DNA of 64,000 nucleotides. It comes from Cordylochernes scorpioides (Eukaryota > Arthropoda > Arachnida > Pseudoscorpiones > Chernetidae). The notes beneath the pieces are model-generated. The model did not search any database. It was not told where the DNA came from and worked only from the letters and a program-made list of their open reading frames with translations. The translations under genes were made by a program, and so were the position numbers. This document shows, one piece after another, positions 7 to 61,499 of this stretch (its first letter is position 1; the number at the start of each line of letters is the position of its first letter). The stretch is taken from positions 144,094,081-144,158,080 of the forward strand of contig CP092863.1 of assembly GCA_030710605.1 (NCBI GenBank). Reading direction: 5' to 3'.

Positions 7-268
7 CACCCATACCTCGCTTTGCGTCGGGGTTACGTTCCAAAAAAAACACGACGCAAATTGAAACGACGCAAAGTGAAAATATGTGAAAACGCAATCA
101 AAAACAAAGGTGTTGCCATATTTTAGGAAAAAATTCAAAAAAATTAAAGACTCGAATCCAAAACAACGCAACTTCGAAAATCTAACGACGCACAGTGAAA
201 ATCAGTAAAAATTAAGCAGCGACGCAACTTCGAAAAAAAAAACGCAAAACGAAACAACGCAATGGGTG
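7..268. mobile_element. TA-flanked MITE of GTTACGTTCC type
   Basis: Terminal inverted repeats CACCCAT/ATGGGTG flanked by TA on both sides (5-6 and 269-270), suggesting a Tc1/mariner-like cut-and-paste origin. The inside is a degenerate series of ACGACGCAAA-like strings. Absent from the right arm at the matching (TA)n site (42215-42248), which explains the homology break. Confidence 0.6.
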
Positions 269-299
269 TATATATATAAATATATATATATATATATGT

Positions 300-2249: not shown

Positions 2250-2690
2250 TAAAGAGACAAAGGTCGTCTCTCCCGTCAAAATAGACGTAAAAACCAGACG
2301 CCATCTATTGACCGTCACCGTAAAATAGCGGCCTCGGGTCGGTGACAAAGCCACAACACCAGCTTTGATAAACTGAAAAGCGTCCACCTAGAGACCATGG
2401 TTTCGGGCTAATGGCCCTCGTCAGCCTAGGGCGGACTTTATTCCATGAGATCCACACGGGATATAATGGAATCTTGACAATCTGCCAAAGTGGTGTTTAG
2501 CTGGCAAAGTGGCTAGGCCATATCTATGGCTGAAATATATATGGAAATTTAGCCAGGAGGATATTGATCTAAAGAGACAAAGGTCGTCTCTCCCGTCAAA
2601 ATAGACGTCAATAGATGGCGTCTGGTTTTGGCGTCTATTTTGACGGGAGAGGCGACCTCTGTCTCTTTATATATATATGTGTGTGTGTAT
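2250..2690 (-). mobile_element. Hammerhead-bearing short repeat (retrozyme-like)
   Basis: A unit of about 310 bp bounded by repeated GTCTCTCCCGTCAAAATAG blocks (2262-2290 and 2580-2605) and containing a hammerhead core on the minus strand. Size, direct flanks and ribozyme resemble retrozymes or the ends of Penelope-like elements. No protein-coding capacity. Counterpart 39700-40110. Confidence 0.6.
2382..2436 (-). ncRNA. Type I hammerhead ribozyme motif
   Basis: Read on the minus strand: CUGACGA, stem II GGGC-cauua-GCCC, GAAA, then ACCAUGGU as stem III and GUC as the cleavage triplet. Flanking arms pair as stem I (GUCC and CCUAG with CUAGG and GGAC). Stem III is a self-complementary 8-mer with no room for a loop, as in dimer-acting hammerheads. 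Mirror copy at 39934-39988. Confidence 0.8.
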
Positions 2691-6309: not shown

Positions 6310-6690
6310 ATCTAAAGAGACAAAGGTCGCCTCTCCCGTCAAATTAGAAGTCAAAACTAGACGCCATCTATTGACTGTCGGCGCAACTAGCGGCCTCGGG
6401 TCGGTGACAAAGCCACAACACCAGCTTTAACTAATTGAAAGGCGTCCACCTAGAGACCATGGTTTCGGGCTAATGGCCCTCGTCAGCCTAAGGCGGACTT
6501 AATTCCATGATATCCACAAGGGATCTAATGGAATCTTGACAATCTGCCAAAGAGGTGTTTAGCTGGCAAAGTGGCTGGACCAAATCTATGGCTAAAAAGG
6601 TTTTTAACGTCTATTTTGACGGGAGAGGCGACCTTTCTCTCTTTAGATCAATATCCTCCCGGCAAAATTTCCATCTATATTTCCATATAC
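6310..6690 (-). mobile_element. Hammerhead-bearing short repeat (retrozyme-like)
   Basis: Bounded by GGTCGCCTCTCCCGTCAAA (6325) and the inverted GACGGGAGAGGCGACC (6617). Contains the same central sequence as 2250-2690, including the hammerhead core. Mirrored at 35440-35780. Confidence 0.6.
6444..6498 (-). ncRNA. Type I hammerhead ribozyme motif
   Basis: Minus strand: CUGACGA, GGGC-cauua-GCCC stem II, GAAA, palindromic ACCAUGGU stem III, GUC cleavage triplet. Stem I outer pairs GUCC/GGAC are kept; inner pairing is weaker than at 39934-39988. Confidence 0.75.
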
Positions 6691-7029: not shown

Positions 7030-7595
7030 AATGTACCAAAGAGAGGCACCTCTCCCTTTGAAATTGAATTATGACAATGCATTTTAGTTCATTGCCCCAG
7101 AACTTTATGTAAGCGATAAAGAATGAGCTACAACATCAGTTTTGGAAAATTCAGACAAAAGCCAACAACCTGTATACCATGGTTTCAGACTATGACCCTC
7201 ATCAGTACATGGGCGGCTTCACTTCCATAACATCCTGCGAAAGGAGTTATGGAATTCAATCGAATTACCTAATAAAGGATTTTAAGCTGGTAAAGTGGCA
7301 AGGGATAATTTTCAGGCTAAAATACAACATAGCGTTGCAAGAGGATGTAGTATTCATATATATGAGAATTGACACCTCTCCCTTTAAAAATGATTTAAAA
7401 AAAACAGTGCATTTCGGTTTATAACTTCAATACAGAATGCAATGGTCATAATGAACAATAAACCTCAACTCAAGTATTCAACAAATTCAGACAAAAACCA
7501 ACCTGTATAACAAGATTTCGGAATATGGCTCTCATCATTATAGGATGGGCTATGATTCGGTATATTTTAAAGGGAGAGGTGCCTATTTTGGTACA
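7030..7595 (-). mobile_element. Tandem hammerhead-bearing repeat, second subfamily
   Basis: Three CACCTCTCCCTTT-type boundaries (about 7048, 7371 and, inverted, 7570) delimit two units of about 325 and 200 bp. The first contains a hammerhead core (7169-7213), the second a decayed one (7502-7546, with GATGAGAGCC and CCGAAATC). The tandem layout with one ribozyme per unit is expected for retrozymes. Mirrored at 34500-35060. Confidence 0.6.
7169..7213 (-). ncRNA. Hammerhead ribozyme motif, subfamily 2
   Basis: Minus strand: CUGAUGA, a short stem II with a GU pair, GAAA, ACCAUGGU stem III and the cleavage triplet GUA. Stem I pairs UGUA with UACA. Stem II (GGGUCAUAGUCU) is weak, so activity is uncertain. 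Confidence 0.6.
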
Positions 7596-28099: not shown

Positions 28100-28170
28100 G
28101 AATCGGTGGTTCAGTGGTAGAATGCTTGCCTGCCACGCGGGAGGCCCGGGTTCGATTCCCGGCCGATGCA
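28100..28170 (+). tRNA. tRNA-Gly (GCC), near intact
   Basis: 71 nt, anticodon GCC, A box TGGTTCAGTGG, B box GGTTCGATTCC, T run directly after the 3' end. As in the left-arm copy, acceptor position 2 is A opposite G instead of the usual C. Whether it is expressed cannot be told. Confidence 0.82.
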
Positions 28171-28216
28171 TTTTTTTTTTTACAATTTTTTTAAAACTTA
28201 TTTATATTATTATTAT

Positions 28217-29615: not shown

Positions 29616-29823
29616 ATATCGCTATAAAACGTGGTAGAGGCCATGATAACCATGGTGGGTAGAAGTTGGCGACCGCCTTTACTGTAAGTACACCACCTAT
29701 CTACATATATGAAAAGCAGTTCGACTTCGCACTTACAAGTATGACTGAACCAAGTTACATGCACTCGCTCGTGGAGGTGGAATTTTGCAAGAATCAGGAG
29801 CCATTGAAGCATTTTATTTAAAT

Positions 29824-29903
29824 TAGAAAAAGTGTCCCAAATCGGGATTTGATCCCGGATCGTAGCGGTCGAATACAATGGTTTAGACCATCCTTCCACC
29901 GAC
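29824..29903 (-). tRNA. tRNA-derived repeat head (pseudo-tRNA)
   Basis: Counterpart of 12383-12462, with the same B-box-like GGATCAAATCC and unpaired acceptor ends. Confidence 0.5.
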
Positions 29904-30004
29904 CCCCCTTTTATTTACTTTAAATAACATATATCATTTAGAACACAGTCAACAATGAAAGCTCTGGATAAAAGGATTGATATTATAATAGAGCATAAAC
30001 AAAA

Positions 30005-30450
30005 AGAGCTTTTGTTGTTGTCGTGTACAATGAAGAGCCTCAGTTGTCTCCATACATCTCTATCACAGAATTGTTCTCTATCTTGGGTGTGTAAAGTTCT
30101 GGGTCCATGTTAATTTTCTGTTGTTGTTATGTCCAATGAAGAGTCTCAGATGTTTCCATACATCTCTATCACAGCAGCAGCAATGTCCACTATCTTGGGT
30201 GTGTAAAGTTCTGGGTCCATATCAATTTTCTGTTGTTGTTGTCGTGTCCAATGAAGAGTCTCAGATGTCTCCATACATCTCTATCACAGCAGCAGCAATG
30301 TCCACTATCTTGGGTGTGTGAAGTTCTGGGTCCATGTCAATTTTCTGCAAGGCTGCGGCCATTGCTGGGCATGTGATAATGTGGGTAGGTGTTAGTTCCA
30401 CATCAGGACAAACAGAAAGAATCAATGACAAAAGTTGCAATGGATATACA
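30005..30450 (-). pseudogene. Non-LTR retrotransposon 3' end with tandem tail copies
   Basis: Minus-strand frame CPDVELTPTHIITCPAMAAAL to PKIVDIAAAVIEMYGDI. The 115-bp end is repeated about four times toward 30010. Counterpart of 11740-12290. Confidence 0.7.
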
Positions 30451-30579
30451 AAGTTCTTTTGACAACATATGATGGATATTTCTATTAAAAATATTATATA
30501 AAAACAAAATACCATTATTGAAAGGCTATTCCAAAGGAAGACCTGTGTGTCTACATTTGTGGTTGATATTACTAAACTA

Positions 30580-31005
30580 GCCGAATGACCCGGGCAACGC
30601 CCGTGTTTTACCCGATTGAATGTTTTGATTCAAATACTATTTGTTACAATTATAAATTGGCGCCTTAAATAAATGCTTATATTAGTTAATAACTATAGCC
30701 TATGTGCTTTATCTGTCTGTGTACTGTTGGCTTCCGTAGGCGTCTCTTACTGGGAAAAAGAAAGAGAGGATTCCATTTAGTTATTAACTAATATATGCAT
30801 TTATATAAGGAGCGCCCCGCTCCAACACAATAGTTACAAACACCAAAAAGCGAGTGGGGGGGGGGCAAAGTCAAAAACAAAGTTTCTCGCGTAGTGGCGG
30901 CGCCATCGTAGCCACGTGATCGTAGCCAACCAATAGGAGAGCGCCATTCCAAGCAAACGGTGACAGAGATAACGCATGACGCTCGTAACTGTATATATAA
31001 TGATA
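30580..31005 (-). mobile_element. Helitron-like element with CTAG 3' end
   Basis: Counterpart of 11085-11511. ACTAGCCGAATGACCCGGGC at 30577 marks the 3' terminus read on the + strand. Confidence 0.65.
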
Positions 31006-31289
31006 TGCTAACCAAACTACACAAATACCAAATATAGAAATAATTTGTTATGGTAATGACGTATTAATAGTATGTTGGAACAAAGAGTTAACAGCTCCTA
31101 AAATTTCTATTGAATATTGAATTAGAAATTATTCATTTATATATTGTGCATAGAAAACTAATTGAGTATCACCCTTGAGAAAACCAATATTTTACATTTA
31201 CACTCATGGAAAACACTTGAGAAAGTGGGAAGTTTTTGTCATTTTGGGGGATACACACACAATTTTGTTGATACTTGGTTATCTCTGTG

Positions 31290-31815
31290 TCTTCAATAAA
31301 GGTAACTGTAATATCTTTCAGAGTTATTGTCTGAATCCCGATATACATGCTGAAAGGTACAACCTTCTTAAGTTTTGTCTATGAGTGTATACACCACTTG
31401 GTTATCTCGTGTGTCTTCAATAAAGTTCACTGTAATATCTTTCAGAGTTATTGTCTGAATCCCGATATACATGCTGAAAGGTACAACCTTCTTAAGTTTT
31501 GTCTATGAGTGTATACACACTTGGTTATCTCGTGTGTCTTCAATAAAGGTCACTGTAATATCTTTCAAAGATATTGTCTCAATCTCGATATACATGGTAA
31601 AATGTAAAACTTCCATAAGTTTTTACAATGAATGTATACACACTTGGTTATCTTGTGTGTCTTCAATAAAAGTCACTGTAATATCTTTCAGAGTTATTGT
31701 CTCAATCCCGATATATATGCTAAAAAGTACAACTTCCTTAAGTTTTGTCTATGACTGTATACACCCTTGGTTATCTCGTGTATCTTCAATAAAGGTCACT
31801 GTAATATATCTAATA
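31290..31815 (-). repeat. 123-bp tandem array (right arm)
   Basis: Counterpart of 10270-10815, about 4.5 units on the minus strand. Open frames across it are repeat artefacts. Confidence 0.85.
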
Positions 31816-31984
31816 AAAATGTCATAAATAAAATAATCGTTATAAATTTTATACACGGTAGTTTTACGTTAATGTCTTCATGTTATTATATATATATTTG
31901 AGAGATATAAAATAAATATTTCAAAAAACCTTTGTAACAGTTCTTTATTAAAATATTATGATGCATTAGCGCGCCATCTGTTAT

Positions 31985-32310
31985 GAATAGAATAGTAGAT
32001 TAAACTGGCGAAACCGCTAGGAGGGTTCACCACTGATGAGCCAGGCCCTCCCATTAATTTATGCATTGCAGTAAAGGGAGTAGAAATTGTTTAATTTTTA
32101 AAAGAATCATACGTGTCTATAATAATTTAGAATTTTCAATACAAATACTTGTTTAATAAAAATTCATATATCTCCAGGGGTTACAAACCACTGGGAGGGT
32201 TCACAACTGATGAACCAAGCCCTCCCAATATTTTATCATCGCATTAAGGACAGTAGAAGTTTGAATTATGTGTGCGTGTGTATGAAAGAAACATCCGCGT
32301 CTTATTATTT
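31985..32310. mobile_element. Two adjacent GGGAGGG-core MITE copies
   Basis: Counterpart of 9790-10090; cores at about 32010-32055 and 32190-32235. Confidence 0.65.
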
Positions 32311-32454
32311 CATTTGCTAAGTATAGATGGCGCGTTTTTACTTTACATTGATTTACTTGTATAAGTTTATTTCTCTAACATTCAAGCTTACATACCCCCC
32401 CTTCAACAGAAGGAACTAGGAGTATAACTTCTAGATAACTATACACATTAATGT

Positions 32455-32668
32455 TCAAATCAATAAGCTTGAGGGATGAGTTACTTTTGCAAATAAATTT
32501 ATTTCGAGCTTTCGGGCAACGCCCTTCTACAGGAAAATTAAAAATATAAAGTAAATTTACTTACTATTTTTAATTTTCCTGTAGAAGGGCGTTTCCCGAA
32601 AGCTCGAAATAAATTTATTTGCAAAAGAAACTCATCCCTCAAGCTTATTGATTTGAACATCCAATTAA
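32455..32668. repeat. Fold-back element, near-perfect 95-bp arms
   Basis: Counterpart of 9430-9642. The second arm has the well-preserved hairpin CCTGTAGAAGGGCGTTTCCC followed by GAAAGCTCG (32579-32606). Confidence 0.88.
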
Positions 32669-33211
32669 GGGATTAGCCTATTAATTATACACATTAATAT
32701 TATATTAATATTGTCACAGTAATGAAGGTGACGTTTGGGTAGAATAAAATAATAATTTATTATATGACTTTAAATAGTTAAAAGAAAGTAAAAAGAAATA
32801 AACAAAGTTAAATGGATAAAAATAATGGTAAATTAAGGAAGTAATGTCGGAGAACCAAACGGCTTGCGATCGAGTACACCCCTCAAGATGGCGGCTATTG
32901 TTTACAAACTTCCCGCCTAGCATGCTCGCCATCTATCGGAGCTTAGGTACATAACACTTGTCAAGCTGAGAGTGCGCGCCACCTATCGGAGCTTAGGTAC
33001 ATAACATTCGCCAAGCTGCCGATGTATTATTTACAGTTACAAGCTATGTACATTTTTGGTTATGACAATTAATTTTAAATGAAAATAAACACCTGTTTGC
33101 AAATATATTATCACAGATTTAATAGAGTCGTAGTTCAAAACAGTTGTTAAATGCTAATTTAAAATGTGTTTGGTTTGTTAATGTATAAATAGTTACAAAG
33201 TTTGTTGGTAG

Positions 33212-33370
33212 ATGGCGCCAGACTGCCTGCCAATCACAGGCAACGTATTGACCCAGCGGGACGTTTGGCTGTGGAGAGCTTGCAGCCCGAGGTTGACGCT
33301 GGGAGGTACGAATGCCAAGCTGAGGAAGCCGGTGTAAGCGCTCGTGGAACTGTAGCCGTACAGGTGGTGG
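33212..33370 (+). CDS. Dscam: Dscam-like exon, second half of Ig6
   Basis: First exon of the gene that I can see on the + strand. Phase 1 to 1, 159 bp, ending GTGGTGG/GTAAGT. Residues GARLPANHRQRIDPAGRL lead to the DxGxYxC Ig motif (DAGRYECQAEE) and the closing strand GTVAVQVV. The preceding exon (first half of Ig6) should end in phase 1 with a G; nothing convincing lies between 20519 and 33211, so the intron is either over 12 kb or the earlier exons are missing from this scaffold. Confidence 0.85.
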
Positions 33371-33424
33371 GTAAGTATCTTATTTTACCTTTTTCTTTGC
33401 ACAAAGCAATAACGCGCCATCTAT

Positions 33425-33665
33425 ACATATAAAATGAAAGGATATAAAAGCATGAATGTTTCTTTTATACATAATACAAACTTCTACTGTCCTTACTGCG
33501 ATGAAAAAATATATTATTGGCGAAAAAACCGCTAGGAGGGTTCACCACTGATGAGCCAAGCCCTCCCAATATTTTTTTTTCATCGCAAAGAGGATAGTAG
33601 AAATTTGTATTATGTATAAAAGAAACATTCATGCTTTTATATTCTTTCATTTTATATGTATTTTA
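33425..33665. mobile_element. Palindromic MITE with GGGAGGG core
   Basis: Counterpart of 8440-8690, starting right after the Ig6b exon region. Arms contain ACTTCTACTGTCCTTACTGC. Confidence 0.75.
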
Positions 33666-33719
33666 CCTTTATATTTACCTTGTACGTTTTTTATTATCCT
33701 TTGTGTCATTATACAATGC

Positions 33720-34380
33720 CACTATTCACATGTATTCCCATCCCTGGACACTTTTATTTTTCTGTTTATCATCACTCTTCACAATTCATACTTTCTCCGC
33801 TTTTGTCAGTCCCAAGCCCGGATGAAAAAGAAGGAGGGGGAGCAGTAACAATCTCGCTAAAAAAACCTGGGTTCAGCTGGCCCGGCTGATAGTACCCTGT
33901 AAGGGCTCTTAATCCAGGGATACAGGATGAGCAGCGTTTGTACTCCATGTTAGGAGCAGCTGCACATGGCGTCTGTTCCTCATGTCAGAGGCGGCCATTT
34001 CTTTTGGAGCTAAGTCGGCCTGCAACGGGGTAGTGCTCCCAGTCTTAATGACAAAGGCATATGCATTCTACTTCACCCAGTCATGATGGTTGTCAAACAG
34101 ACCCCACCAAAGGTCACAACTTGATACCCTAATATGATTGAGTGGAGATAAAGAAGAAGAAGAAAGAAGATTCATCCTTTCATACTTCATCATTAAGGTT
34201 AGGGATATTAGTTTTTTCTCCGTTAAAACATTACGATTTTTCGTTCAAAAGAAACATTTGCGGTAAAATTTTTAAACGTCGTTCCATATGTATCTTTTTT
34301 TGGATTAGTTATTGTACAGCTCATGCTTGGTGTCTCCCATACATGAGAGCAGATGGTCTGGGGTTATTTATACATATGTA
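33720..34380 (+). repeat. SINE-body and retroelement 3'-end repeats
   Basis: 33740-33780 shares CATCCCTGGACACTTTTATT with the SINE at 26238; 33870-34140 is the counterpart of the 7990-8240 repeat; 34170-34290 again resembles the SINE body (TTCATCCTTTCAT, CAAAAGAAACAT). Confidence 0.5.
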
Positions 34381-34499
34381 AAAATAATTGTATATTGGTA
34401 TAGCACATTTAACTTATTTCTATATATTCATTTGGTCTTTATAATTTGTATATATGCATCCTGTGTGTATGAAGTTGATAGAGAATGTTATGTATATAC

Positions 34500-35060
34500 C
34501 AAAATAGGCACCTCTCCCTTTAAAATATACCGAATCATAGCCCATTCCTATACTGATGAGAATCATAATCCCAAACCTTGTTATACAGGTTGGGTTTTGT
34601 CTGAATTTGTCGAATACTTGAGTTGTGGCTTATTCTTCATCATGACCATTGCATTCTGTATTGAGGTGATAAACCGAAATGCATTGTTTTTTTTTATCCT
34701 TTTTAAAAGGGAGAGGTGTCAATTCTCTTGTATATGAATATCACATCCTCTTGCAACGCTATGTTGTATTTTAGCCTGAAAATTATCCCTTGCTACTTTA
34801 CCAGCTTAAAATCCTTTTCAGTAAATTCGATTGAAATTCATAACCTATCTCGTAGGATGTTATGGAAGTGAAGCCGTCCCTGTACTGATGAGGGTCATAG
34901 CCTGAAACCATGGTATACTGGTTGTTGGTTGTTGTCTGAATTTTCCTAAACTGGTGTTGTGACTTATTCTTTATCACTTACATAAAGTTCTATACTGGGG
35001 CAATGAACTAAAATGCATTGTCATAATTCAATTTCAAAGGGAGAGATGCCTCTTTGGTAC
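34500..35060 (+). mobile_element. Tandem hammerhead-bearing repeat, second subfamily
   Basis: Counterpart of 7030-7595, with CACCTCTCCCTTT or its complement at 34510, 34710 and 35040. Contains the hammerhead at 34878-34921 and a decayed one at 34545-34590 (CUGAUGAGAAUC, with CAAAC instead of GAAAC). Confidence 0.6.
34878..34921 (+). ncRNA. Hammerhead ribozyme motif, subfamily 2
   Basis: CUGAUGA, stem II GGG-ucauag-CCU, GAAA, ACCAUGGU stem III, cleavage triplet GUA, and stem I CCCUGUA against UACUGG with one mismatch. Confidence 0.65.
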
Positions 35061-35439
35061 ATTTACAAATATTTTATTTTTTAATTCTCTATGTGTTTGC
35101 TTTATAAGTTTAATTTATTTTAAACTTAAGTAGATGGTTACGCGAGAATAAATTTTAAAAAAGTTTGATTGTTAATAGATATGCAAAGTAGTGTTAGACC
35201 GTTAACAAAAGGTTTAACTATATATGTAAATTTATTGTAAATGTTTAGAATTTTTCCCATATCGCGATTTTTTATTTGGTTAGATTTCATGGAAAACAAG
35301 CCTTGTATAATTGGACATTGCCTGATTTATAGAAAGTGAAACTTCATTTTAACAATTTTCGTGTAACTTCTTGTGTCGTAGGTAACATAGGCTGGTATTG
35401 AATGTATATGTAAATATAGATGGAAATTTTGCCGGGAGG

Positions 35440-35780
35440 ATATTGATCTAAAGAGACAAAGGTCGCCTCTCCCATCAAAATAAACGTCAAAAACCTTTTA
35501 GCCATAGATTTGGTCCAGCCACTTTGCCAGCTAAACACCTCTTTGGCAGATTGTCAAGATTCCATGAGATCCCTTGAGGATCTCATGGAATAAAGTCCGC
35601 CTTATGCTGACGAGGGCCATTAGCCGGAAACCATGGTCTCTAGGTGGACGCCTTTCAATTTGCCAAAGCTGGTGTTGTGGCTTTGTCACCGACCCGAGTC
35701 CGCTAGTTGCGGCGACTGCCAATAGATGGCGTCTAGTTTTGACGTCTATTTTGACGGGAGAGGCGAACTTTGCCTCTTTA
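35440..35780 (+). mobile_element. Hammerhead-bearing short repeat (retrozyme-like)
   Basis: Counterpart of 6310-6690, bounded by GTCGCCTCTCCC and GGGAGAGGCGAAC. Confidence 0.6.
35595..35649 (+). ncRNA. Hammerhead ribozyme motif, stem II damaged
   Basis: CUGACGA, GGGC-cauua-GCCG, GAAA, ACCAUGGU, GUC. The G in place of C at the end of stem II breaks the closing pair next to GAAA, so this copy is probably weak or dead. Confidence 0.65.
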
Positions 35781-35814
35781 GATATGTAAATATGTAAATA
35801 TATAATTATAGGTT

Positions 35815-36180
35815 TGTACATCGCCTAGATATCTGTAATGTGTACAACGGGATGTGTACGGCGTGTACAACGGAATTGTTTGAGATTCTTCGGTCACATC
35901 GCGTGACACAGGGGAATGGAGTACACCATACTGACCGGAAATATGTCTGGGCGATACATACCTGTAAACCCACCAACAAGCTTCGTAGACCAATTAAAGG
36001 AACTCACTGGTTTAACGGTCACCGAGATGGTACATTGAGTTCAAGACAGAGATGGCTGGTGTCGTGTTTGGAATGTAATATGTACAGTGCAACGTTCGAT
36101 CGTGAATAAAATGGCTGGCGTCGTGTTTGGGATTTAATATGTACAGTACAACGTTCGATCGCGAATAAATGATTAATAAA
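35815..36180 (+). pseudogene. Non-LTR retrotransposon C-terminal relic
   Basis: Counterpart of 5985-6266 with frame breaks. A short segment (GTGTTTGGGATTTAATATG and following bases) is duplicated near 36110-36170. Confidence 0.65.
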
Positions 36181-36549
36181 ATCTTTGAAGTACGGTATCA
36201 TATGAGATGTGCACATATGTAAACATGATTGCAATTTTATTTGCATAATCTAGGTCAGTATTACGAATATTTTGTGGAGCGGGTAGCAAACTGTGTTGTG
36301 AGGTTATGTTAGGTATGGGACACCATTCACAATAGACTGTGAAGTGGATACTACAAAAGAATGATATCATTATTAATGTATCTTGCGATGAGTTTATCTT
36401 AAGAATATTGTTAATTTTATTGATATAAATCTACTGGATATTAATCAAGTCAATGCTACAGGTTTCGGAGACCTAGGACACAAGAGGTTACACAGAATTA
36501 GTTACATTCTATTGTCACATCCAAGTTAACCTTCAACTCAAGTGTTATC

Positions 36550-36735
36550 TTACAATGAGTTTCTTTTAATTACAAAACGCTAGCTTTTAAGTGATAATCG
36601 CTCTTCAACGAGCTTAAAACATCGACAATATCTTACAAGATTTCTTGTAGGATATAGTCAATGTTTTATTAAGCCCGTTGAAGAGCGATTTTCATTTAAA
36701 GGCTAGCGTTTTGTAATTAAAAGAAACTCATTGTG
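36550..36735. repeat. Fold-back element
   Basis: Counterpart of 5450-5615. Arms contain AAACGCTAGCTTTTAAGTG and the GTTGAAGAGCG hairpin motif, separated by TCTTACAAGATTTCTTG. Confidence 0.8.
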
Positions 36736-36867
36736 AGAAAATATTTTGTAATTTTCAAACTTTTTTTACAATTTTATCATGAATCAAGTGTTATCTGTTT
36801 CAGTGGCAATTCTAAATATTCTTCAAGCTTGAGTGCGTTCTGTCAACTTAAGTGTTATCTGTTTCAG

Positions 36868-37155
36868 TGGCCCCAGAGTTGGATCCCAACACGTTTCCAG
36901 AGAAAGTGGTGGCACGGGCTGGGACTAGAGTGAAGTTACTCTGTTCCGTGATTGGAGGGGATGGACCTCTGAACGTGGGATGGGTCCGTACAAACAGAGG
37001 ACCTTTGGGTCCTGATGTCACTCTACAGCCACTAGAGGACTCCGCTGTGCTGATTCTATTCCGACGTCTAGCCCCACACATGGCTGGTAACTACACCTGC
37101 TTCGCTGAGAACCGAGCTGCTCTCGTGGAGCGTCACACCACCCTGGAAGTTCAAG
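36868..37155 (+). CDS. Dscam: Dscam-like exon, complete Ig7
   Basis: 288-bp exon, phase 1 to 1, acceptor CTGTTTCAG, donor CAAG/GTACAC. It encodes a full Ig domain with cysteines in KLLCSV and GNYTCFAEN and the core tryptophan in VGWVRTN. Its position between Ig6b and the VPPRW-type Ig8 start fits Dscam Ig7. The final 30 bases plus the donor and intron start are repeated four more times downstream (37252-38030), giving extra potential 5' splice sites. Confidence 0.92.
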
Positions 37156-37251
37156 GTACACTAATCTCACCCATCTTTCCCTTTCTTATAAAGCAACCCG
37201 AACATCAGACCGTTCAACAAACAGGTCTTAAACAACACCCAGTTCCAACCC

Positions 37252-38030
37252 TGTAACACATGAAGCGACACACCACCATGGAAGTCCAAGGTACCATAAT
37301 CTCGCCCTTCTTTACCTTTCTTTTAAAGAAACTGGAACATCAGACCGTTCAACAAACAGATCTATAACGACACCCAGTTCTAATCCTTATTACCCTTCTT
37401 ATATATATGACGAATTTTATATGAATATATATAATGTTGTAACACATATAGTGACATACCACCCTGGATGTCCAAGGTACCATAATCTCACCCATCTTTC
37501 CCTTTCTTATAAAGAAACTGGAACATAAGACCGTTCAACGAATTGGTCTTAAACGACACCCAGTTCTAACCCTTATTATAGTCTTTACATATATGTCGTA
37601 TTTTATATATGAATATATATAAATTTGTAACACGTGAAGTGACACATCACCCTGGAAGTTCATGGTACCATAATCTCACCCATCATTCCCTTTCTTAGAA
37701 AGAAACTGGAACATCAGACCGTTCAACGAATGTGTGTGGGTCTTAAGCAACAGCCAGTTCTAATCCTTATTACCCTTTTTACATATATGTCGTATTTTTT
37801 ATATGAATATATATTATGTTGTAACACGTGAAGCGACATACCACCATGGAAGTTCAAGGTACCATAATCTCACCCATCTTTCCCTTTCTTAGAAAGAAGC
37901 TGGAACATCAGACCATTCAACGAATGGGTCTTAAACAACAGCCAGTTTTAATCCGTATTACAATTTTCACAAATCTAGCGTATTTTATATGTTGTACATA
38001 TAATGTTTTACATCGAATCACCCCATGATG
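37252..38030 (+). repeat. Tandem copies of the Ig7 exon end plus splice donor
   Basis: Four units starting near 37252, 37438, 37624 and 37820 (186-196 bp). Each begins GTAACAC, then a degenerate copy of the last exon codons (for example encoding RHTTMEVQ), then AAG/GTACCATAATCTC. The third has ATG/GT instead of AAG/GT. The rest of each unit is intron sequence. Confidence 0.85.
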
Positions 38031-38039
38031 TAACTACTA

Positions 38040-39380
38040 AATGGTGTTTATAAAATGCTTTCCGTAAGATGTAGTATTTGTCTTTTGAACTGCTAAAGGT
38101 ATTCACAAATCAACTGATACACCCTGTATATGATTACTTATCCTGGTCTACCTTTCTCTATCTGTTTTTATAACGTTTCGGTGACTCATTGCCTTCATTT
38201 TCATTATCCTGAAAATAGAGGTTGCCTGGCCGGCATTCAAATTTATGTATAAACAAGAAGACCCTGTTTGTTCTTCGAACAAAATGATACAAAAAAACGA
38301 TATTCCCGAACATTTTAGATTTCAAATATTATGTAAAAGTGATAGCAACGTTTCATAAAAGCATTCCATTCACAAAAGCAAACGATGGCAGAATTGATGA
38401 TTCTGATACTTGTATATAGGATTAGAGACTTCGGTCAGTTAAAGTTTTATTTTCTCAACGTTTCAACAAAAATCTGTTGTCTGGAGAAATACATAAAAAT
38501 GGGTATTTGGCAAGGTGATGAAAATTGTTATCATTGTATTCAAAATATTGAACTACTGTACACACTTTTCAACATTTTCATAGAAATCGGTAAAAAATAA
38601 ACAATAGAAAATTAATTTTCTATTGAAAGAATGAAAGCGGGCTATCGAAATGTTGGTGTTAATACAAAATAATGGTTGAAAAGGAATATTTGAATATTTT
38701 GTTATGTATTTATAAATTGATGCAGAGAGGAAGACCCTATATCAACAAATTAAATGTACCAACACTTCACCCTACGTATTGCTTTCAAAAATATCAGCAA
38801 ACAAATCTAAGGCAATAGCTTACTATAAACCTTTTAGATTATCATTATGTAAGGACCAGTCAACAAGTGAATGACTTTGAGATGAAGAGTAAAGCCAGTT
38901 CAATTTCTATGTAAATAACACAAGATGATTATTACCTTACCAAATTGGGAGAATCTGTATGGGTTAAGTCCGCAATAAAGGCTTTTTGTGTGTGTGTGGT
39001 GTGTGTTATGTATTTATAAAGGTGCGTATGTCTCTAGAAACAACCTCGTACCTAAGAAGTCCTCTATTCGCCGGCAGATTCATGGAGAACTGGGAACTAA
39101 GGGTACGAGGGCCATAGAAGGGAAGTCCTATTGGAGCGTAAGACAGGTTTTACCAAGTCTAAACGAGAGGACAGCAACCTGGCCATGAAACTCTCGTAGA
39201 GGTCTGTGGGCTGATTTGTCGATCCCATGGAGCTAGACCATAAAGACAGGCGCGAGAGGCCAAACCATTCTCGGTGCGTGGAGAATGTATCATTCCCTAG
39301 GTGATTGAAAAAGGATCGGTTTATGGAACGAGAGGTCTGGGTGGCCATATTATTCCTAGGATGTCTCTATAAACAGCTAA
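38040..39380. other. Intron between Ig7 and Ig8a, no gene seen
   Basis: Mirrors 3000-4340. Includes AACAAGAAGACCCTGTTTGT and its inverted neighbour, a GT tract at 38983-39000 and repeat fragments; no exon recognised. Confidence 0.5.
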
Positions 39381-39399
39381 TCGATTGAGGTGTACGCAG

Positions 39400-39519
39400 T
39401 GCCCCCACGATGGACCGTGGAGCCCCGAGATATCTCCGTGGTGGCTGGACAACCAGTCCTAATGGACTGTGTAGCTGAAGGACTTCCCAATCCATCTGTC
39501 CTCTGGAGGAAGAAACAAG
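39400..39519 (+). CDS. Dscam: Dscam-like exon, first half of Ig8
   Basis: 120 bp, phase 1 to 1, acceptor TGTACGCAG, donor CAAG/GTCTCT. It begins VPPRWTVEPRDISVV, which is close to the start of Dscam Ig8, and holds the first cysteine (LMDCVAEG) and tryptophan (VLWRKK) of the domain. It joins in frame to 41167-41331. Confidence 0.9.
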
Positions 39520-39699
39520 GTCTCTTTATCTACTTATTTCTTTTATCCACTTTTATTCAAATGTACATTTAAACGATCAAATATTTTAGTCAATTATTAC
39601 CAGATTCCTCTTAAGGCGTCATCTTTTGTTGAAAATTGATTCAAACTTTTATTTATATCTATTATATTTAAATACACACATATATATGTATATATATAT

Positions 39700-40115
39700 C
39701 TAAAGAGAAAAAGGTCGCCTCTCCCGTCAAAATAGACGTCAAAACCAGACGCCATCTATTGACGTCTATTTTGACGGGAGAGACGACCTTTGTCTCTTTA
39801 GATCAATATCTTCCCGGCAAAATTCTCATTTATATTTTAGCCATATATATGGCCCAGCCACTTTGGCAGCTAAACACCTCTTTGGCAGATTGTCAAGATT
39901 CCTTTAGATCCCGTGTGGATCTCATGGAATTAAGTCCGCCCTAGACTGACGAGGGCCATTAGCCCGAAACCATGGTCTCTAGGTGGACGCTTTTCAGTTT
40001 GTCAAAGCTGGTTTTGTGCTTTGTCACTGACCCGAGGCCGCTAGTTGCGGCGACGATCAATAGATGGCGTCTGGTTTTGACGGGAGAGGCGACCTTTTTA
40101 TCTTTAGATCAATGT
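39700..40115 (+). mobile_element. Hammerhead-bearing short repeat (retrozyme-like)
   Basis: Counterpart of 2250-2690. GGTCGCCTCTCCCGTCAAAA at 39713 and GGGAGAGGCGACC at 40083 bound it; a third, inverted GGGAGAGACGACC lies at 39776. Confidence 0.62.
39934..39988 (+). ncRNA. Type I hammerhead ribozyme motif, well preserved
   Basis: CUGACGA, stem II GGGC-cauua-GCCC, GAAA, palindromic ACCAUGGU stem III and GUC cleavage triplet. Stem I is strong: CCUAGA pairs perfectly with UCUAGG, and GUCC with GGAC beyond an internal loop. All core bases fit the hammerhead consensus (CUGANGA, GAAA, UH). Confidence 0.85.
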
Positions 40116-40119
40116 CCTC

Positions 40120-40850
40120 CCGGCAAATTTCCATATATATATATATATATATGTTACACTAGATGGCGCTCTGCCATCTAGAAATGCTAATGTGAGCGGT
40201 CAGACTATGCCTTATACAGTAGAACTTCCTTGTAAAGGACACCTAATTACAGAGCCAAAGTGTACTTTAGGGAGAGATGTCTTCTTACCAGAGAGTGGCT
40301 AAATTGTAAAAATGGTAATTTTGCAAATGAAAACTGTCCTTTGTGGAGAGATGTCCGCTAAAGGGAGGTTCTACTGTATATATATATATATATATTATAA
40401 ATAAAATATTTTCTGCTGATTTTGTAATATTTTGAAATATACAGTATTATTAGCTGTTGCTTGATTATGGAATCCATGAGTATTTTACGTTATTGTTTTG
40501 CAGTCGTGGCAATAATTAAATAAAATTAGTTATCAAAAATAGCTTTAATCGAGCTAAAGGAATATATAAAAAACATAATTTGATAAAGTACTGCCTGTCT
40601 AAAGGCGTAAGAATAAAAAAAAATGAAAAACCTATTTACATAATGTACAAAAGGTTTGAGCCGGCCATCAGGAAACAACAACAATGAGTTTTTTATAGGG
40701 GAAGCGTGACCTATGGCGGTCTGTTTAACAGAATATTTGAATCTATGAAATATAATTTTAAATATAATAATATTTTTATATAACGTATATAGTTTTTATA
40801 ATATGATGCACTAGAGCGCGCCATCTGTTATCAAAATTCGAAATTATTTT
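40120..40850. other. Intron sequence, no gene seen
   Basis: Mirrors 1560-2220: a GAGAGATGTCCGC repeat pair, (TA)n at 40375-40395 and the GAGCCGGCCATC repeat. No exon recognised. Confidence 0.5.
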
Positions 40851-40859
40851 AAAGGCGTA

Positions 40860-41065
40860 AGATTCTGCTGGGAGGGTTCACCACTGATGAGCCAGACCCT
40901 CCCATTAATTTTTCCATTCCAGTAAGGGCAGTAAAAATTGTTTATTTTCAAACCGCTTGGAGGGTTAACCACTGATGAGCCAGGCCCTCCCATTAATTTT
41001 TCCATTGCAGTAAGGGCAGTAGAAATTGTTTATTTTCAAAAAGAATCTTACGCCTTTAAAACAAT
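40860..41065 (-). repeat. Two tandem MITE-core copies
   Basis: Right-arm counterpart of the five-copy array at 1085-1525, with GCGTAAGATTCT and its inverse at the two ends. Copy number differs, two against five. Confidence 0.85.
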
Positions 41066-41166
41066 TTCGAATTTTGATATATAGTTTTATTTACTAGAGG
41101 GATATACAGTGCAATTGTTCTTACGTGATTTTGTAGTTGTGAAGACTGTGACGTTATGTATGTCAG

Positions 41167-41331
41167 GATCCCACTACAGCGCCGTCACTCCTGGCTACAG
41201 ACGTCAGATGCTTGAGAACGGGACACTGTCCTTGGTAGCAGCTGAACCTGGAGACGCAGGACACTACATGTGTCAAGCTGCCAACGGAGTGGGAGCTGGT
41301 CTCAGTAAAGTTGTCTCCCTCACTGTCCACA
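41167..41331 (+). CDS. Dscam: Dscam-like exon, second half of Ig8
   Basis: 165 bp, phase 1 to 1, acceptor TATGTCAG, donor A/GTAAGT. It encodes RRQMLENGTLSLVAAEPGD followed by the DAGHYMCQAANGVG motif with the second Ig cysteine. Last exon within the duplicated arm; from here on the gene is single copy in this window. Confidence 0.9.
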
Positions 41332-41499
41332 GTAAGTCCACAACCTGTACATAATAATTCGTCAGGTTTTGACGTCTATTTTGACGGGAGAGGCCCCCCT
41401 ATGCTTCTATGAATCAATTTTCTCCCGGCAAATTTCCCATCTATATTTTACATCTGTACACAGTGAATTTATATAGTGAATAAGAAGGAATAAAAACCA

Positions 41500-42439: not shown

Positions 42440-43795
42440 CACAAAAGCCTTTATAAACTCATAAAGTCTTAAACTCATAGACAAAACTTAAGGAAGTTGT
42501 ACCTTTCAGCATGTATATCGGGATTCAGACAATAACTCTGAAAGATATTACAGTGACCTTTATTGAAGACAAACGAGATAACCAAGTGTGTATACACTCA
42601 TGGAAAAAACTTAAGGAAGTTGTACCATTTAGCATGTATATCGGGATTCAGACAATAACTCTGAAAGATATTACAGTGACTTTTATTGAAGACACTCGAG
42701 ATAACCAAGTGTGTATACACTCATGGAAAAAACTTAAGGAAGTTGTACCTTTTACCATGTATATCGGGATTCAGACAATAACTCTGAAAGATATTACAGT
42801 GACTTTTATTGAAGACACAAGAGATAACCAAGTGTGTATACACTCACGGAAAAAACTTAAGGAAGTTGTACCTTTTACCATGTATATCGGGATTCAGACA
42901 ACAACTCTGAAAGATATTACAGTGACTTTTATTGAAGACACACGAGATAACCAAGTGTGTATACACTCATAGAAAAAACTTAAGGAAGTTGTACCCTTTA
43001 CCATGTATATCGGGATTCAGATAACAACTCTGAAAGATATTACAGTGACTTTTATTGAAGACACACGAGATAACCAAGTGTGTATACACTCATGGACAAA
43101 ACTTAAGGAAGTTGTACCCTTTACCATGTATATCGGGATTCAGATAATAACTCTGAAAGATATTACAGTGACTTTTATTGAAGACATACGAGATAACCAA
43201 GTGTGTATACACTCATGGAAAAAACATAAGGAAGTTGTACCTTTTAGCATGTATATCGGGATTCAGACAATAACTCTGAAAGATATTACAGTGACTTTTA
43301 TTGAAGACACAAGAGATAACCAAGTGTGTATACACTCATGGAAAAAATTCAAGGAAGTTGTACCTTTCAGCATGTATATCGGGATTCAATAACTCTGAAA
43401 TATATTACAGTGACCTTTATTGAAGACACACGAGATAACCAAGTGTGTATACACTCATGGAAAAACTTAAGGAAGCTGTACCTTTCAGAATGCATATCAC
43501 ATATCAGGATTCAGACAATAACTCTGAAAGATATTACAGTGACCTTTATTAGAGAAACACGAGATAACCAAGTGTATATACACTCATGGACAAAACTTAA
43601 GGAAGTTGTACCTTTTATCATGTATATCGGGATTCAGACAATAACTCTGAAAGATATTACAGTGACCTTTATTAGAGAAACACGAGATAACCAAAGTGTG
43701 AACAAAATTGTCTCTGTCTCCTTAAAAAAAAATCACAGACAACCGGCGTCATCAAGATATAAAATTTCCTCAAATTCTATCCATAAGTGTATATT
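42440..43795 (+). repeat. Large 123-bp tandem array from a TA-type MITE
   Basis: Ten or so units of 123 bp, each with ATGTATATCGGGATTCAGA, GATATTACAGTGAC and CAAGTGTGTATACACTCATG. Because 123 is 41 codons, frames stay open for 129-178 codons, but they have no other coding sign. Ends in the unique MITE 3' part (ACAAAATTGTCTCTGTCTCC, CCATAAGTGTATAT) at 43700-43795. Confidence 0.92.
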
Positions 43796-55234: not shown

Positions 55235-55530
55235 ATGAAATGGAAGCAGCCCCTGTACTGATGAGGGCCATAAGCCCGAAAGCATTGTATACAAGTTAGA
55301 TTTTTGTCAAGATTTTCCAAAACTGGTGTTGTATATAATTATTTTTCACCATTAGTAAAAGACGTTACTAGTGTTGATAAACATAATGCATTGTCCTGAG
55401 GCATAGTTAAAGGGAGAGGTGTCTTTCTAGATACCTATAATATGTATATTTTTATGAAATAAAGTTGGGAAAGGATGATATTTATTCACAAATAGAGGCA
55501 CCTCTCCCTTTGAAAATGCAAATATATATA
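55235..55530 (+). mobile_element. Hammerhead-bearing repeat, subfamily 2
   Basis: Contains the motif at 55251-55295, then AAAGGGAGAGGTGTC (55408) and CACCTCTCCCTTTGAAA (55499). Related to 34500-35060. A further boundary copy lies at 56336-56352. Confidence 0.6.
55251..55295 (+). ncRNA. Hammerhead ribozyme motif, stem III decayed
   Basis: CCUGUA, CUGAUGA, stem II GGGC-cauaa-GCCC, GAAA, then GCAUUGUA and UACAAG. Stem I and stem II are sound; stem III (AGCAUUGU) no longer pairs well. Confidence 0.6.
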
Positions 55531-57160: not shown

Positions 57161-57231
57161 TACCTGAAGGACCACCTCTGGATATCCGAGTTCATCCAAC
57201 AGGAGCCCAGTCTCTTAAAGTGACATGGAAG
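57161..57231 (+). CDS. Dscam: Dscam-like exon, first half of FN2
   Basis: Small 71-bp exon, phase 1 to 0, acceptor ATGTTTACAG, donor AAG/GTAATA. It encodes VPEGPPLDIRVHPTGAQ and the FN3 tryptophan in LKVTWK. It ends exactly after TWK, where the next exon begins with PP, reproducing the Dscam FN2 sequence pattern. Confidence 0.88.
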
Positions 57232-57422
57232 GTAATATTTGCATATTGTCTACTATAGTTTGCATACTAGTTTATATAGTTGCATACCTGTTTATATATT
57301 TATAATTATACTAGCCTATGTGAAAATATAGTACAAATGTGATATTGTACTGGGATAATCCGTTTCATGATTTTTCAGGATGCTTGAATGACCAGTTTTT
57401 TGGTGTTTGAGGTACAGCTTGC

Positions 57423-57464
57423 ACCACGCTGATGAGGGCCAACAGCCCGAAACGCGTCCGTGGT
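57423..57464 (+). ncRNA. Minimal type I hammerhead ribozyme, apparently intact
   Basis: Only 42 nt: stem I ACCACG/CGUGGU (6 perfect pairs), CUGAUGA, stem II GGGC-caaca-GCCC, GAAA, stem III ACGCGU, cleavage triplet GUC. Every invariant core base is present. Stem III is a self-complementary hexamer that cannot form a looped helix, so cleavage would favour a dimer, as known for newt satellite and Penelope-type hammerheads. A decayed relative is at 61403-61440. Confidence 0.88.
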
Positions 57465-57599
57465 TAGCATTTATTGATTAATCAAGAATGGGTATTTGGC
57501 CAATTCTGGAATAATTAAAAATCAACGAGAATGGTTGATATTTATTCCGATAGATGGCGCAAGCCATCAGCAACTTTCAGTTGCACGATAAGGAGATGC

Positions 57600-58850
57600 C
57601 TTTTTCATAATATACTAGCTTATATTTTCTAGTGTATATAGTTTATATACTGGAAAATATATAATTTACATACTAGTTTATATAGTTGCATACCTGTGTT
57701 TATATATTTACATACCTGTGTTTATATATAAGTTACATTATATTAGCTTATATTTACCCGGGCAGTTGGCGTTTCTTGCGCTCCAGGGGCCTGGGTTATT
57801 CTTATTTCTCTCTATAGCCTATATTTTATAATTATCTCTCATAAAGTTGACCTACTATAGCTTATATAATATACATACTATACGATGCATTAGTACGCCA
57901 ATTGTTATAGAAATTCGAACTATTTTGACGCTTATGCTTCTTTTAAAAAAATATCAATTTTCTTCTGCCCTTACTGCAAATAAACTGGCGAAACTGCTGG
58001 GAGGGTTCACCATAAGCCAGGCACTTACATTATTCTATCATTGAAGTAAAGGTAGTAGAAAATTGATTTATTCTTAAAAGAATCATATTTCAAATATAGA
58101 AAAAAATAGTTCAAAATTTCCTGTCTGCTCAAAATGCTTCAACTCCACTCCAGCACATATCCTGGACTGTATTGGAGTTAAGACCTATACAAGATCCCCA
58201 AAACTATAGTAGAAAAAACGTATTGCTTCCAATTTCATGACCTGGTGTAATCTTAACCATGAGATAATAAAAAGGAAAAATAAAGCATCCATTTCTTATA
58301 TTGTTGCGTTGACAAAGAATATCTTCCGTGGGTACAAAGGATCTTTAAAACTTTATTTAAGCCTAATCGTTGATAAAATTACAGAAGAGTGCAAAAATAA
58401 AACAACAATAAAGAAAACGGCAGTTTCAAAATCACCAACTGCAGCACAGTGAAGGAAAGCAGGAGCAGAACAGGAGACAGAAGTTGGTAGAACCTTCTAG
58501 AATCTTCCAAGAAGTACACCGGCGTTGGCGGTAAGCAGCAGTCTGACCTCTTGAGACAGCAGCTTGCTTGGAGTACACCACATAGCTTCATTCTTCTACC
58601 TCCATATATATACCGGAGTAGATCTTTCCAGAACGGTCATGGTTGGTTAGCCAATCAGAAAGCCGCCAGCGCTGAGCCTTGCGCAATCGCTACTGATTGG
58701 TCAATCAGTTGTTCTTCGATTTTTCTACATTTTTCTTGAACGTTCTAAATCATTATTCTGGAATGCGCTTTTTTTTTATGTAACAATATATAGATAACAC
58801 GTTATCACCTTATAATTAAGTATTTGTTATTGTCATATCCTCACTCTCTA
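57600..58850. other. Intron with repeat fragments, no gene seen
   Basis: 57890-58080 is a decayed GGGAGGG-type MITE (CTGGGAGGGTTCACCAT). 58450-58740 is less AT-rich, with no recognisable protein. No exon before 58863. Confidence 0.5.
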
Positions 58851-58862
58851 CACGCCGTGCAG

Positions 58863-59097
58863 CCTCCCCACTCCGGGCTACAACACGGTACCATCCAAGG
58901 CTACTACGTGGGCTACCGTGCCGCAGCTGCCGACGGGGAACCCTACCAGTACAAGAACGTGGAGGCGAGTCGAGGCACCACCAGCTACCTCACAAACCTA
59001 CGACGTCTCACGCGCTACGGCGTTATCGTACAGGCTTACAACGGTGTAGGCCCCGGGCCTCGCTCTGATGAGGCCTTCGCTACAACACTTGAAGCTG
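58863..59097 (+). CDS. Dscam: Dscam-like exon, rest of FN2
   Basis: 235 bp, phase 0 to 1, acceptor CGCCGTGCAG, donor CTG/GTAGGA. It encodes LQHGTIQGYYVGYR, then LTNLRRLTRYGVIVQAYN and GVGPGPRSDEAFATTLEA. The GxIxGYxVGYR and VQAxNxVGPGPxS strings are hallmarks of Dscam FN2. The next exon follows after only 427 bp, leaving little room for the FN3-FN4-Ig10 exons expected at this point. Confidence 0.92.
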
Positions 59098-59311
59098 GTA
59101 GGAAACATCTTTGTTTGTCAACCTCAACTATATAATCTTATTCCTTTTGTGTAATGAATTGTAGATCGAAAGGTGTAAGTAGTCATATGGCTATATGATG
59201 TTCTTTTCTGATTCCGGTTTCGACACCGAAATAAAGACTCATAGACAAAACATAAGGAAGTTTTACCTTTTATCATTTATATCGGGATTCAGACAATAAC
59301 TCTGAAAAATA

Positions 59312-60218: not shown

Positions 60219-60289
60219 CCATCGGTGGTTCAGTGGTAGAATGCTCGCCTGCCCCCTGGGCGGCTCGGGTTCGATTCCCGGCCGATGCA
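60219..60289 (+). pseudogene. tRNA-Gly pseudogene
   Basis: 71 nt with intact B box GGTTCGATTCC and T run after the 3' end, but the anticodon arm is broken: CUCGC faces CUGGG, and position 37 is C. Preceded by the same TTTGGCCATTTCT flank as the 14123 and 28100 copies, so the tRNA travels with the repeat. Confidence 0.8.
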
Positions 60290-61340: not shown

Positions 61341-61499
61341 CTAATATGATTGAGTAGAGATGAGAATGAAAAAGAAGAAGATAAATTAAGAAAAAAGGCA
61401 TTTCCTGACGAGGGCCAACAGCTCGGAACGCGTACATGGTTAGCTTTTCTTGATTAATCAAGAAACGGTATTTGGCCAATTCTGGAATAATTAAAATCT

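What the first reader, a model, noticed from the sequence alone, without database searches (positions are those of the whole stretch)
57423..57464. Intact 42-nt hammerhead ribozyme with palindromic stem III
All invariant hammerhead bases, a perfect 6-bp stem I, a 4-bp stem II and a GUC cleavage triplet are present. Stem III is the self-complementary ACGCGU, which predicts cleavage as a dimer.
Basis: partly seen in the sequence, partly recalled or inferred. Interest (0 to 1): 0.8.

Follow-up and report, generated by a model that had tools for sequence, protein, structure and literature searches.

The report
Hammerhead ribozyme in a retrozyme copy
The motif is a genuine hammerhead ribozyme sequence inside one short, truncated copy of a very abundant ribozyme-bearing retrotransposon, and the scars its copies leave suggest that Penelope-type retrotransposons move it.

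Summary
57423-57464 carries every hammerhead core base, a 6-bp stem I, a 4-bp stem II, a palindromic ACGCGU stem III and a GUC site. It is not a lone ribozyme. It lies in a 317-bp insertion (57307-57623, including 13-bp target-site duplications identical at 12 of 13 bases) in an intron of a Dscam-like gene. The insertion is a 5'-truncated, head-to-head copy of an HHR element with a ~338-nt unit that forms tandem arrays elsewhere. A degenerate HHR pattern has 22,012 exact matches in this 2.62-Gb genome (control 0). Two more HHR families lie in the window; family A has 10,008 pattern matches.

This is a new member of a known kind: animal type I HHR "non-LTR retrozymes". The informative part is the insertion scar. 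Copies end at one of two 3' positions ~35-50 nt apart, and head-to-head insertions mostly carry one of each: 13 of 16 in one set, 14 of 16 in a second. Two adjacent reverse-transcription start sites and an optional 30-40-bp "tail" are published as unique to Penelope-like elements. That supports the proposed, unproven Penelope mobilisation of animal retrozymes. Cleavage, RNA circles and the mobilising enzyme were not tested.

The parts
57423..57464 (+). type I hammerhead ribozyme, family C; predicted cleavage 3' of C17 at 57458
57307..57319 (.). left target-site duplication TATACTAGCCTAT
   Evidence: family D4
57318..57358 (-). inverted (head-to-head) arm, unit positions 241..201; its outer end is the long, tailed 3' end
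57360..57614 (+). forward arm of the retrozyme copy, unit positions 278..194; ends at the short 3' end; carries the HHR
57611..57623 (.). right target-site duplication TATACTAGCTTAT (12 of 13 identical to the left one)
   Evidence: family D4
61398..61446 (+). truncated family C copy (61405-61496) with a decayed HHR (core GGAA in place of GAAA; 5' strand of stem I lost)
2381..2436 (-). family A HHR, head-to-head copy
6443..6498 (-). family A HHR, head-to-head copy
35595..35650 (+). family A HHR (duplicate of 6443-6498 within the inverted duplication)
39934..39989 (+). family A HHR (duplicate of 2381-2436)
7163..7217 (-). family B HHR; a weaker, decayed HHR match lies at 7496-7550, 333 nt away in the same orientation
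34873..34927 (+). family B HHR (duplicate of 7163-7217); decayed partner at 34541-34595
55246..55301 (+). family B HHR, diverged copy
57161..57231 (+). putative exon upstream of the HHR-bearing intron (read by eye: AG before, GT after; FN3-like reading PEGPPLDIRVHPTGAQSLKVTWK); its frame gave no Pfam match
58794..59135 (+). open frame with the next FN3 segment of the Dscam-like gene, downstream of the HHR
   Evidence: fn3, 1.8e-7; Dscam 7y8s, 4.7e-18

Best explanation
57423-57464 is the hammerhead ribozyme of a non-autonomous, non-coding retrotransposon of the animal retrozyme kind, present here as one 5'-truncated copy in an intron of a Dscam-like gene. Proposed cycle. A tandem array is transcribed; pairs of HHRs on the multimer, joined through the self-complementary stem III, cut it into ~338-nt units; the units are probably ligated into highly base-paired circles. 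A Penelope-like reverse transcriptase/GIY-YIG endonuclease acting in trans copies such RNA at staggered breaks in AT-rich DNA, priming from both broken strands and starting at one of two nearby sites on the RNA. The two truncated copies meet head to head, usually one with the short 3' end and one with the tailed 3' end. Shown here: HHR anatomy, covariation, unit length and tandems, two fixed 3' ends, head-to-head arms mostly with exactly one tail, target-site duplications, many GIY-YIG genes in the genome, one element of that kind with the same scar. Inferred: cleavage, dimer action, circles, and Penelope enzymes as the mobilisers.
For: HHR and covariation: 10 HHRs of groups A, B, C and C2; 114 of 120 cells paired; 20 cells changed on both sides and covariation score 0.587 against 0.307 (sd 0.035), 0 of 500 shuffles reaching either. 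Copy number: 22,012 exact HHR patterns for C/C2 and 10,008 for A, reversed controls 0. Unit and tandems: 338-340 nt in L005, L006, L008, L032; five HHRs at exact 338-nt spacing among the first 100 places. Non-coding and self-paired (unit of L032): longest stop-to-stop stretch in three joined units 63 codons; circular fold -109.5 kcal/mol, z -7.5, 0 of 100 shuffles as low. Two 3' ends: the 40 forward copies end at unit 185-198 (32 of 40) or 240-247 (8 of 40), while 5' ends vary. One tail per head-to-head insertion: 13 of 16; second set 14 of 16, 13 by alignment plus L075 by eye. Neighbours under 1500 bp among the first 100 places of each pattern: C 7 head-to-head, 8 tandem, 1 tail-to-tail; A 9, 2, 0. 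Shared flank strings of 9 or more bases: 16 of 40 against 6.2% of mismatched flank pairs; 12 of 13 against 20.5%. Penelope machinery: 146 GIY-YIG matches, 150 scored of 17,015 candidates; PLE-type HHR-like motifs in 14 of 30 such loci (no shuffle control). L073 is head to head with one arm ending just before an ATG and the other 36 nt longer from that ATG. Published: a Penelope-like enzyme starts reverse transcription at two adjacent internal sites, which account for an optional 30-40-bp tail called unique to these elements (PMC11167929, abstract and passages).
Against: No cleavage, RNA or circle data. In the Anolis Penelope-like element HHR mutants did not affect insertion in vitro and no RNA-seq reads began or ended at the HHR site (PMC11167929, passages), so HHR cleavage may not be needed for this kind of insertion. 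No autonomous Penelope-like element carrying the C unit was found; 4 of 30 GIY-YIG loci hold C-like fragments, about what the window's density would give by chance (my estimate). Exceptions to the one-tail rule: first set 1 with no tail and 2 with an intermediate outer end (5 further copies dropped); second set L090 with another outer end and L084 unresolved. The first 40 copies were chosen for similarity to the window copy and some are duplicates (L005/L006, L030/L031; L004/L011/L027 share a 5' end). Targets are AT-rich, so part of the duplication signal is simple sequence. In the first set the link between arms is modest (Fisher p 0.033). In one search two of five measures do not clearly exceed shuffles (pairs changed on both sides 27 of 500; further pair types 399 of 500), and stem III gives no covariation support. 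L072 and L073 were fetched partly because the listing showed inverted GIY-YIG pairs there, and the 10-mer flanking L073 is part of a local tandem repeat.
Confidence: 0.78

Rival explanations
1. Families A, B and C are not independent retrozymes but pseudo-LTR (pLTR) arrays left by formerly autonomous Penelope-like elements that lost their open reading frame. This overlaps with the best explanation and differs in origin, not in the way copies insert.
For: HHR at a fixed place in the unit, one-tail pattern, and an ATG at about the start of the tail in family C (unit position 194, short ends at 185-198) and in 7 of 9 family A loci, as in the autonomous element L073. Solo pLTRs are reported in rotifers (PMC3846280, passages).
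Against: No autonomous element with these pLTRs was found among 34 GIY-YIG loci looked at. The HHRs have a longer stem I than the PLE-type motifs of this genome (by eye). In family A the ATG is missing in L076 and L077. The tail frame of C in L006 runs 47 codons and does not resemble the start of the L074 frame (by eye).
Confidence: 0.4
2. A SINE moved by an ordinary LINE, with 5' inversions made by twin priming.
For: 5' truncation and 9-15-bp target-site duplications are also LINE features (the LINE comparison is recalled). A LINE-like frame lies at 24868-25740 (my reading).
Against: Twin priming is expected to leave the outer end of the inverted piece at a variable internal position (recalled). 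Here 14 of 16 inverted outer ends sit at the two fixed 3' positions.
Confidence: 0.12
3. An exapted intronic hammerhead acting in maturation of the Dscam-like transcript, in the manner of the amniote HH9/HH10 ribozymes.
For: Same strand as the gene, between coding segments. Best sub-threshold Rfam match is HH9.
Against: Lies in a high-copy insertion with target-site duplication; best other copies 99% identical over 180 nt. A lone HHR with a loop-less stem III is expected to be weak.
Confidence: 0.03
4. Chance match or satellite repeat without ribozyme function.
For: Tandem arrays do occur.
Against: 0 of 100 shuffles for the strict pattern, covariation, dispersed copies with target-site duplications.
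Confidence: 0.03

Closest known systems
Animal non-LTR retrozymes (Cervera and de la Pena 2020, PMC7229834; parts 1-2 of 6 and passages seen)
   Same: Type I HHR in non-coding tandem units (RNAs of ~170-400 nt), low G+C (unit of L032 40%), dimers to large multimers, highly self-paired, in a genome that also has Penelope-like elements with minimal HHRs.
   Different: Stem III without a loop (ACGCGU; ACCAUGGU in A and B). The insertion architecture found here was not in the parts and passages seen. No RNA was tested.
Penelope-like elements and their small HHR variants (PMC3846280 and PMC11167929, passages; Lunse et al. 2017 known only from a reference list)
   Same: Head-to-head arms, optional tail between two 3' ends, target-site duplications (8-10 bp in the passages, about 9-15 here), partial tandems, HHR.
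   Different: No open reading frame. Longer stem I than in the PLE-type motifs found here (by eye).
Rfam RF02275 Hammerhead_HH9
   Same: Core and fold.
   Different: 25.1 bits against a gathering score of 52; HH9 as an amniote intronic HHR is recalled.
Axolotl HHR_Amex1 as described in PMC7229834 (passages)
   Same: Weak helix III of one pair capped by a palindromic tetraloop, a reading that fits ACGCGU; dimers cleave better.
   Different: Sequence and host; loop 1-loop 2 contacts not tested here.

Membership tests
Hammerhead ribozyme, type I | invariant core CUGANGA...GAAA...UH | tested here: met
Hammerhead ribozyme, type I | three helices with open-ended stem I, supported by covariation | tested here: met
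   stem I 5 of 6 pairs and stem II 1 of 4 pairs changed on both sides; stem III almost invariant, no covariation support
Hammerhead ribozyme, type I | score above an Rfam hammerhead gathering threshold (a library criterion, not a defining one) | tested here: not met
   (25.1 of 52 bits for HH9)
Hammerhead ribozyme, type I | self-cleavage after H17 | not testable with these tools
   none
Animal non-LTR retrozyme | non-coding tandem unit of ~150-450 bp with one HHR | tested here: met
   HHR spacing 338-350 nt in C/C2; 319 nt in A
Animal non-LTR retrozyme | highly self-paired unit RNA | tested here: met
   z -7.5 for the unit of L032
Animal non-LTR retrozyme | expressed linear and circular unit RNA | not testable with these tools
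   no RNA data
Penelope-type insertion | head-to-head arms | tested here: met
   21 of 40 copies have an inverted arm; close-neighbour pairs 16 head-to-head to 1 tail-to-tail
Penelope-type insertion | two 3' ends, the longer (tail) on one of the inverted ends | tested here: met
   13 of 16 and 14 of 16
Penelope-like element, autonomous | RT and GIY-YIG open reading frame in the element | tested here: not met
   no stretch over 63 codons in the unit; hence not filed as an autonomous Penelope-like element
Non-autonomous derivative of a Penelope-like element | an autonomous element that shares the unit | tested here: inconclusive
   none among 34 GIY-YIG loci looked at, a small part of 17,015 candidates

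The most novel reading that the evidence does not exclude
Animal retrozymes are parasites, or stripped-down descendants, of Penelope-like elements. Each head-to-head insertion is made by two reverse transcriptions primed from the two broken strands under a rule that gives one arm the short 3' end and the other the end that runs ~35-50 nt past an ATG. The missing mobiliser of animal retrozymes would thus be readable from insertion scars.
Probability: 0.5. Interest if true: 0.6.

Novelty: new member of a known kind. Interest (0 to 1): 0.42.

Why it matters
Published work proposes, from shared HHRs, tandem copies and co-occurrence, that Penelope-like elements mobilise animal retrozymes, and leaves it open (PMC7229834 and PMC7761336, passages). 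The scars here give a direct structural test: two fixed 3' ends, head-to-head arms and mostly one tail per insertion, in three sequence groups (A, C, C2) and in one autonomous Penelope-like element of the same genome. With tens of thousands of copies the rule can be counted exactly and used to infer how Penelope enzymes prime both strands.

Tried and rejected
Chance motif: rejected. Stand-alone intronic ribozyme with a host role: not supported, as the locus is a high-copy insertion. Free folding of the monomer: the minimum-energy fold pairs part of the core and the energy is not exceptional, so only a constrained comparison was used.

LINE twin priming: disfavoured because the outer ends are fixed. 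Autonomous partner: looked for in 30 GIY-YIG loci plus 4 larger regions, not found. Viral contigs: the C/C2 HHR pattern has 0 matches. Family B copy number: not completed. The Dscam-like gene suggests an animal, perhaps an arthropod (inference).

An earlier count said 14 of 16 for the first set; the recount gives 13 of 16, used here. Rows dropped before that count: of 21 copies with an inverted arm, L006 (near-duplicate of L005) and L008, L018, L028, L040 (arm runs to the end of the fetched stretch). L014, whose arm ends 2 nt from the stretch end, was kept. In one search the ends of L082 were set by eye; the others are those. The second set is all 16 head-to-head pairs found among the first 100 places listed of 22,012 (C/C2) and of 10,008 (A). 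In one search only the A pairs I had picked by eye were typed; one search repeats the count on all 100 with the same result.

Full report
Observation. The 42 nt at 57423-57464 read ACCACG-CUGAUGA-GGGC-CAACA-GCCC-GAA-ACGCGU-C-CGUGGU. The strict pattern, up to 3 mismatches, has 2 matches in the window and 0 in 100 dinucleotide shuffles. Rfam does not call it at gathering level; the best permissive match is Hammerhead_HH9, 25.1 bits against 52. Folding energy alone is unremarkable (z -1.56).

It is one of many. The window holds HHR motifs in three families: A (four copies, stem III ACCAUGGU), B (three copies plus two decayed matches, stem III ACCAUGGU or a variant) and C (the finding plus a truncated, decayed copy at 61405). 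The pairs 2424/39946, 6486/35607 and 7205/34885 mirror one another because the window contains a large inverted duplication. Two C-type HHRs from elsewhere in the genome (C2; L053, L068) differ by compensating changes in stems I and II. Over 10 HHRs, 114 of 120 cells pair, 20 cells are changed on both sides, and the covariation score is 0.587 against 0.307 in shuffles, 0 of 500 reaching it; slid structures pair in 20 to 41% of cells. Two other measures do not clearly exceed shuffles (27 and 399 of 500), and stem III almost never varies.

The element. A 180-nt probe from the HHR on gave 43 matches, 40 scored of 851 first-look candidates, at 94-100% identity. The 40 full-length places were fetched. 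The HHR recurs every 338-340 nt in L005, L006, L008 and L032. Genome-wide, a degenerate HHR pattern has 22,012 exact matches (11,034 and 10,978 on the two strands; reversed control 0). In the first 100 places the second stem II pair is G-C, C-G or a wobble in 98 of 100 (my reading of the list). Pattern A has 10,008 matches, control 0. The unit of L032 has no stop-to-stop stretch over 63 codons, and its circular form folds at -109.5 kcal/mol, 7.5 standard deviations below 100 shuffles.

Insertion anatomy. The 40 forward copies end at unit position 185-198 (32 of 40) or 240-247 (8 of 40), whereas 5' ends are scattered. Of the 40, 21 have an inverted piece abutting the 5' end, head to head. After dropping 5 (one near-duplicate, four whose arm runs to the end of the stretch), 14 of 16 inverted pieces have their outer end at one of the same two positions, and 13 of 16 insertions have one short and one long end; 1 has two short ends and 2 have an intermediate outer end. 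As a second set I took all 16 head-to-head pairs in the two pattern listings (9 of A, 4 of C, 3 of C2). Exactly one tail: 13 by alignment, and L075 by eye; L090 has another outer end and L084 is unresolved. Shared flank strings of 9 or more bases are found in 16 of 40 copies (mismatched flank pairs 6.2%) and in 12 of the 13 aligned loci of the second set (mismatched 20.5%); several are AT-rich simple sequence.

The window copy fits the pattern: left duplication 57307-57319, inverted arm 57318-57358 with the long end outward, forward arm 57360-57614 with the short end, right duplication 57611-57623, 12 of 13 identical. It is less than one unit and has one HHR, so a cis dimer is impossible at this locus.

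Who moves it. [quoted passage not shown] The Anolis element cleaves and extends both strands and starts reverse transcription at two adjacent internal sites; the sequence between them is the optional 30-40-bp tail, called shared between and unique to these elements (PMC11167929, abstract and passages). The two 3' ends found here, ~35-50 nt apart, look like that. The same paper reports that HHR mutants did not affect insertion in vitro, which speaks against a need for HHR cleavage in this kind of insertion. In this genome GIY-YIG domains are abundant (146 matches, 150 scored of 17,015 candidates), and PLE-type HHR-like motifs lie in 14 of 30 GIY-YIG loci (no shuffle control). Of four regions fetched around long GIY-YIG frames, three hold head-to-head pairs (L072, L073, L074); L072 and L073 were picked partly because the listing showed inverted pairs. 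In L073 one arm ends just before an ATG and the other runs 36 nt further from that ATG; the 10-mer GATTCAGGTA stands on both sides, but the target is a repeat that contains it. In family C an ATG likewise lies at about the start of the tail (unit position 194), and in family A in 7 of 9 loci. This is the basis for the Penelope reading. It is structural, not biochemical, and no autonomous element with the C unit was found.

Known or new. Animal type I HHRs in short tandem units, expressed as circles of ~170-400 nt, are described, and Penelope-like elements are named there as a strong candidate mobiliser (PMC7229834, parts 1-2 of 6 and passages; PMC7761336, passages). Small HHR variants of Penelope-like elements that cleave as dimers are the title of Lunse et al. 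2017, seen only in a reference list; that paper and Cervera and de la Pena 2014 are not held. So the finding is a new member of a known kind. I did not find the head-to-head, one-tail architecture stated for retrozymes in the listings or in the passages seen; this is not proof that it is unpublished.

Host gene. Neighbouring frames encode an FN3 segment whose best solved relative is Dscam (7y8s, 4.7e-18) and an Ig segment whose best-ranked chain is titin (3.4e-20, no single stretch passing on its own) followed by Dscam (3dmk, 4.4e-10). The exon just upstream of the HHR gave no Pfam match. The HHR is on the coding strand between coding segments, so the pre-mRNA would contain it. I see no evidence for a host role.

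Noticed in passing
window 693-18233 and 25918-41425: Large inverted duplication (larger pieces 87-97% identical) that includes an Ig exon of the Dscam-like gene at 4916-5320(-) and 36852-37256(+), plus the same HHR insertions on both arms; old segmental duplication or assembly effect not resolved.
   Followed up: partly
window 14123-14193(-), 28100-28170(+), 60219-60289(+): Three tRNA-Gly(GCC)-like genes with altered acceptor ends; possibly heads of a tRNA-derived SINE (inference).
   Followed up: no
window 42470-43700, 10281-10815, 31273-31807, 22085-22397: A ~123-bp tandem repeat, open over 122-180 codons in places (KEVVPFTMYIGIQTITLKDITVTFIEDTRDNQVCIHS-like on one strand).
   Followed up: no
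window 61385-61496: Truncated family C copy that starts exactly at C3 of the HHR core behind a short inverted tail-like piece, then runs into a frame like the end of a LINE reverse transcriptase (by eye).
   Followed up: partly
L074 4215(+); L042, L044, L045, L051, L054, L057-L060, L064-L068: PLE-type HHR-like motifs (CTGACGA..GACAAAAG..TTTTGTC GAA ACGTC and an AGCT type) near GIY-YIG genes; ACGU and AGCU could also be self-complementary stem III strands.
   Followed up: partly
L084 1-440: Internal tandem duplication of a ~115-nt HHR-containing part of the C unit, giving three closely spaced HHRs on one strand.
   Followed up: no
window 15466-15798(+): Mariner-like transposase fragment (my reading of the frame).
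   Followed up: no
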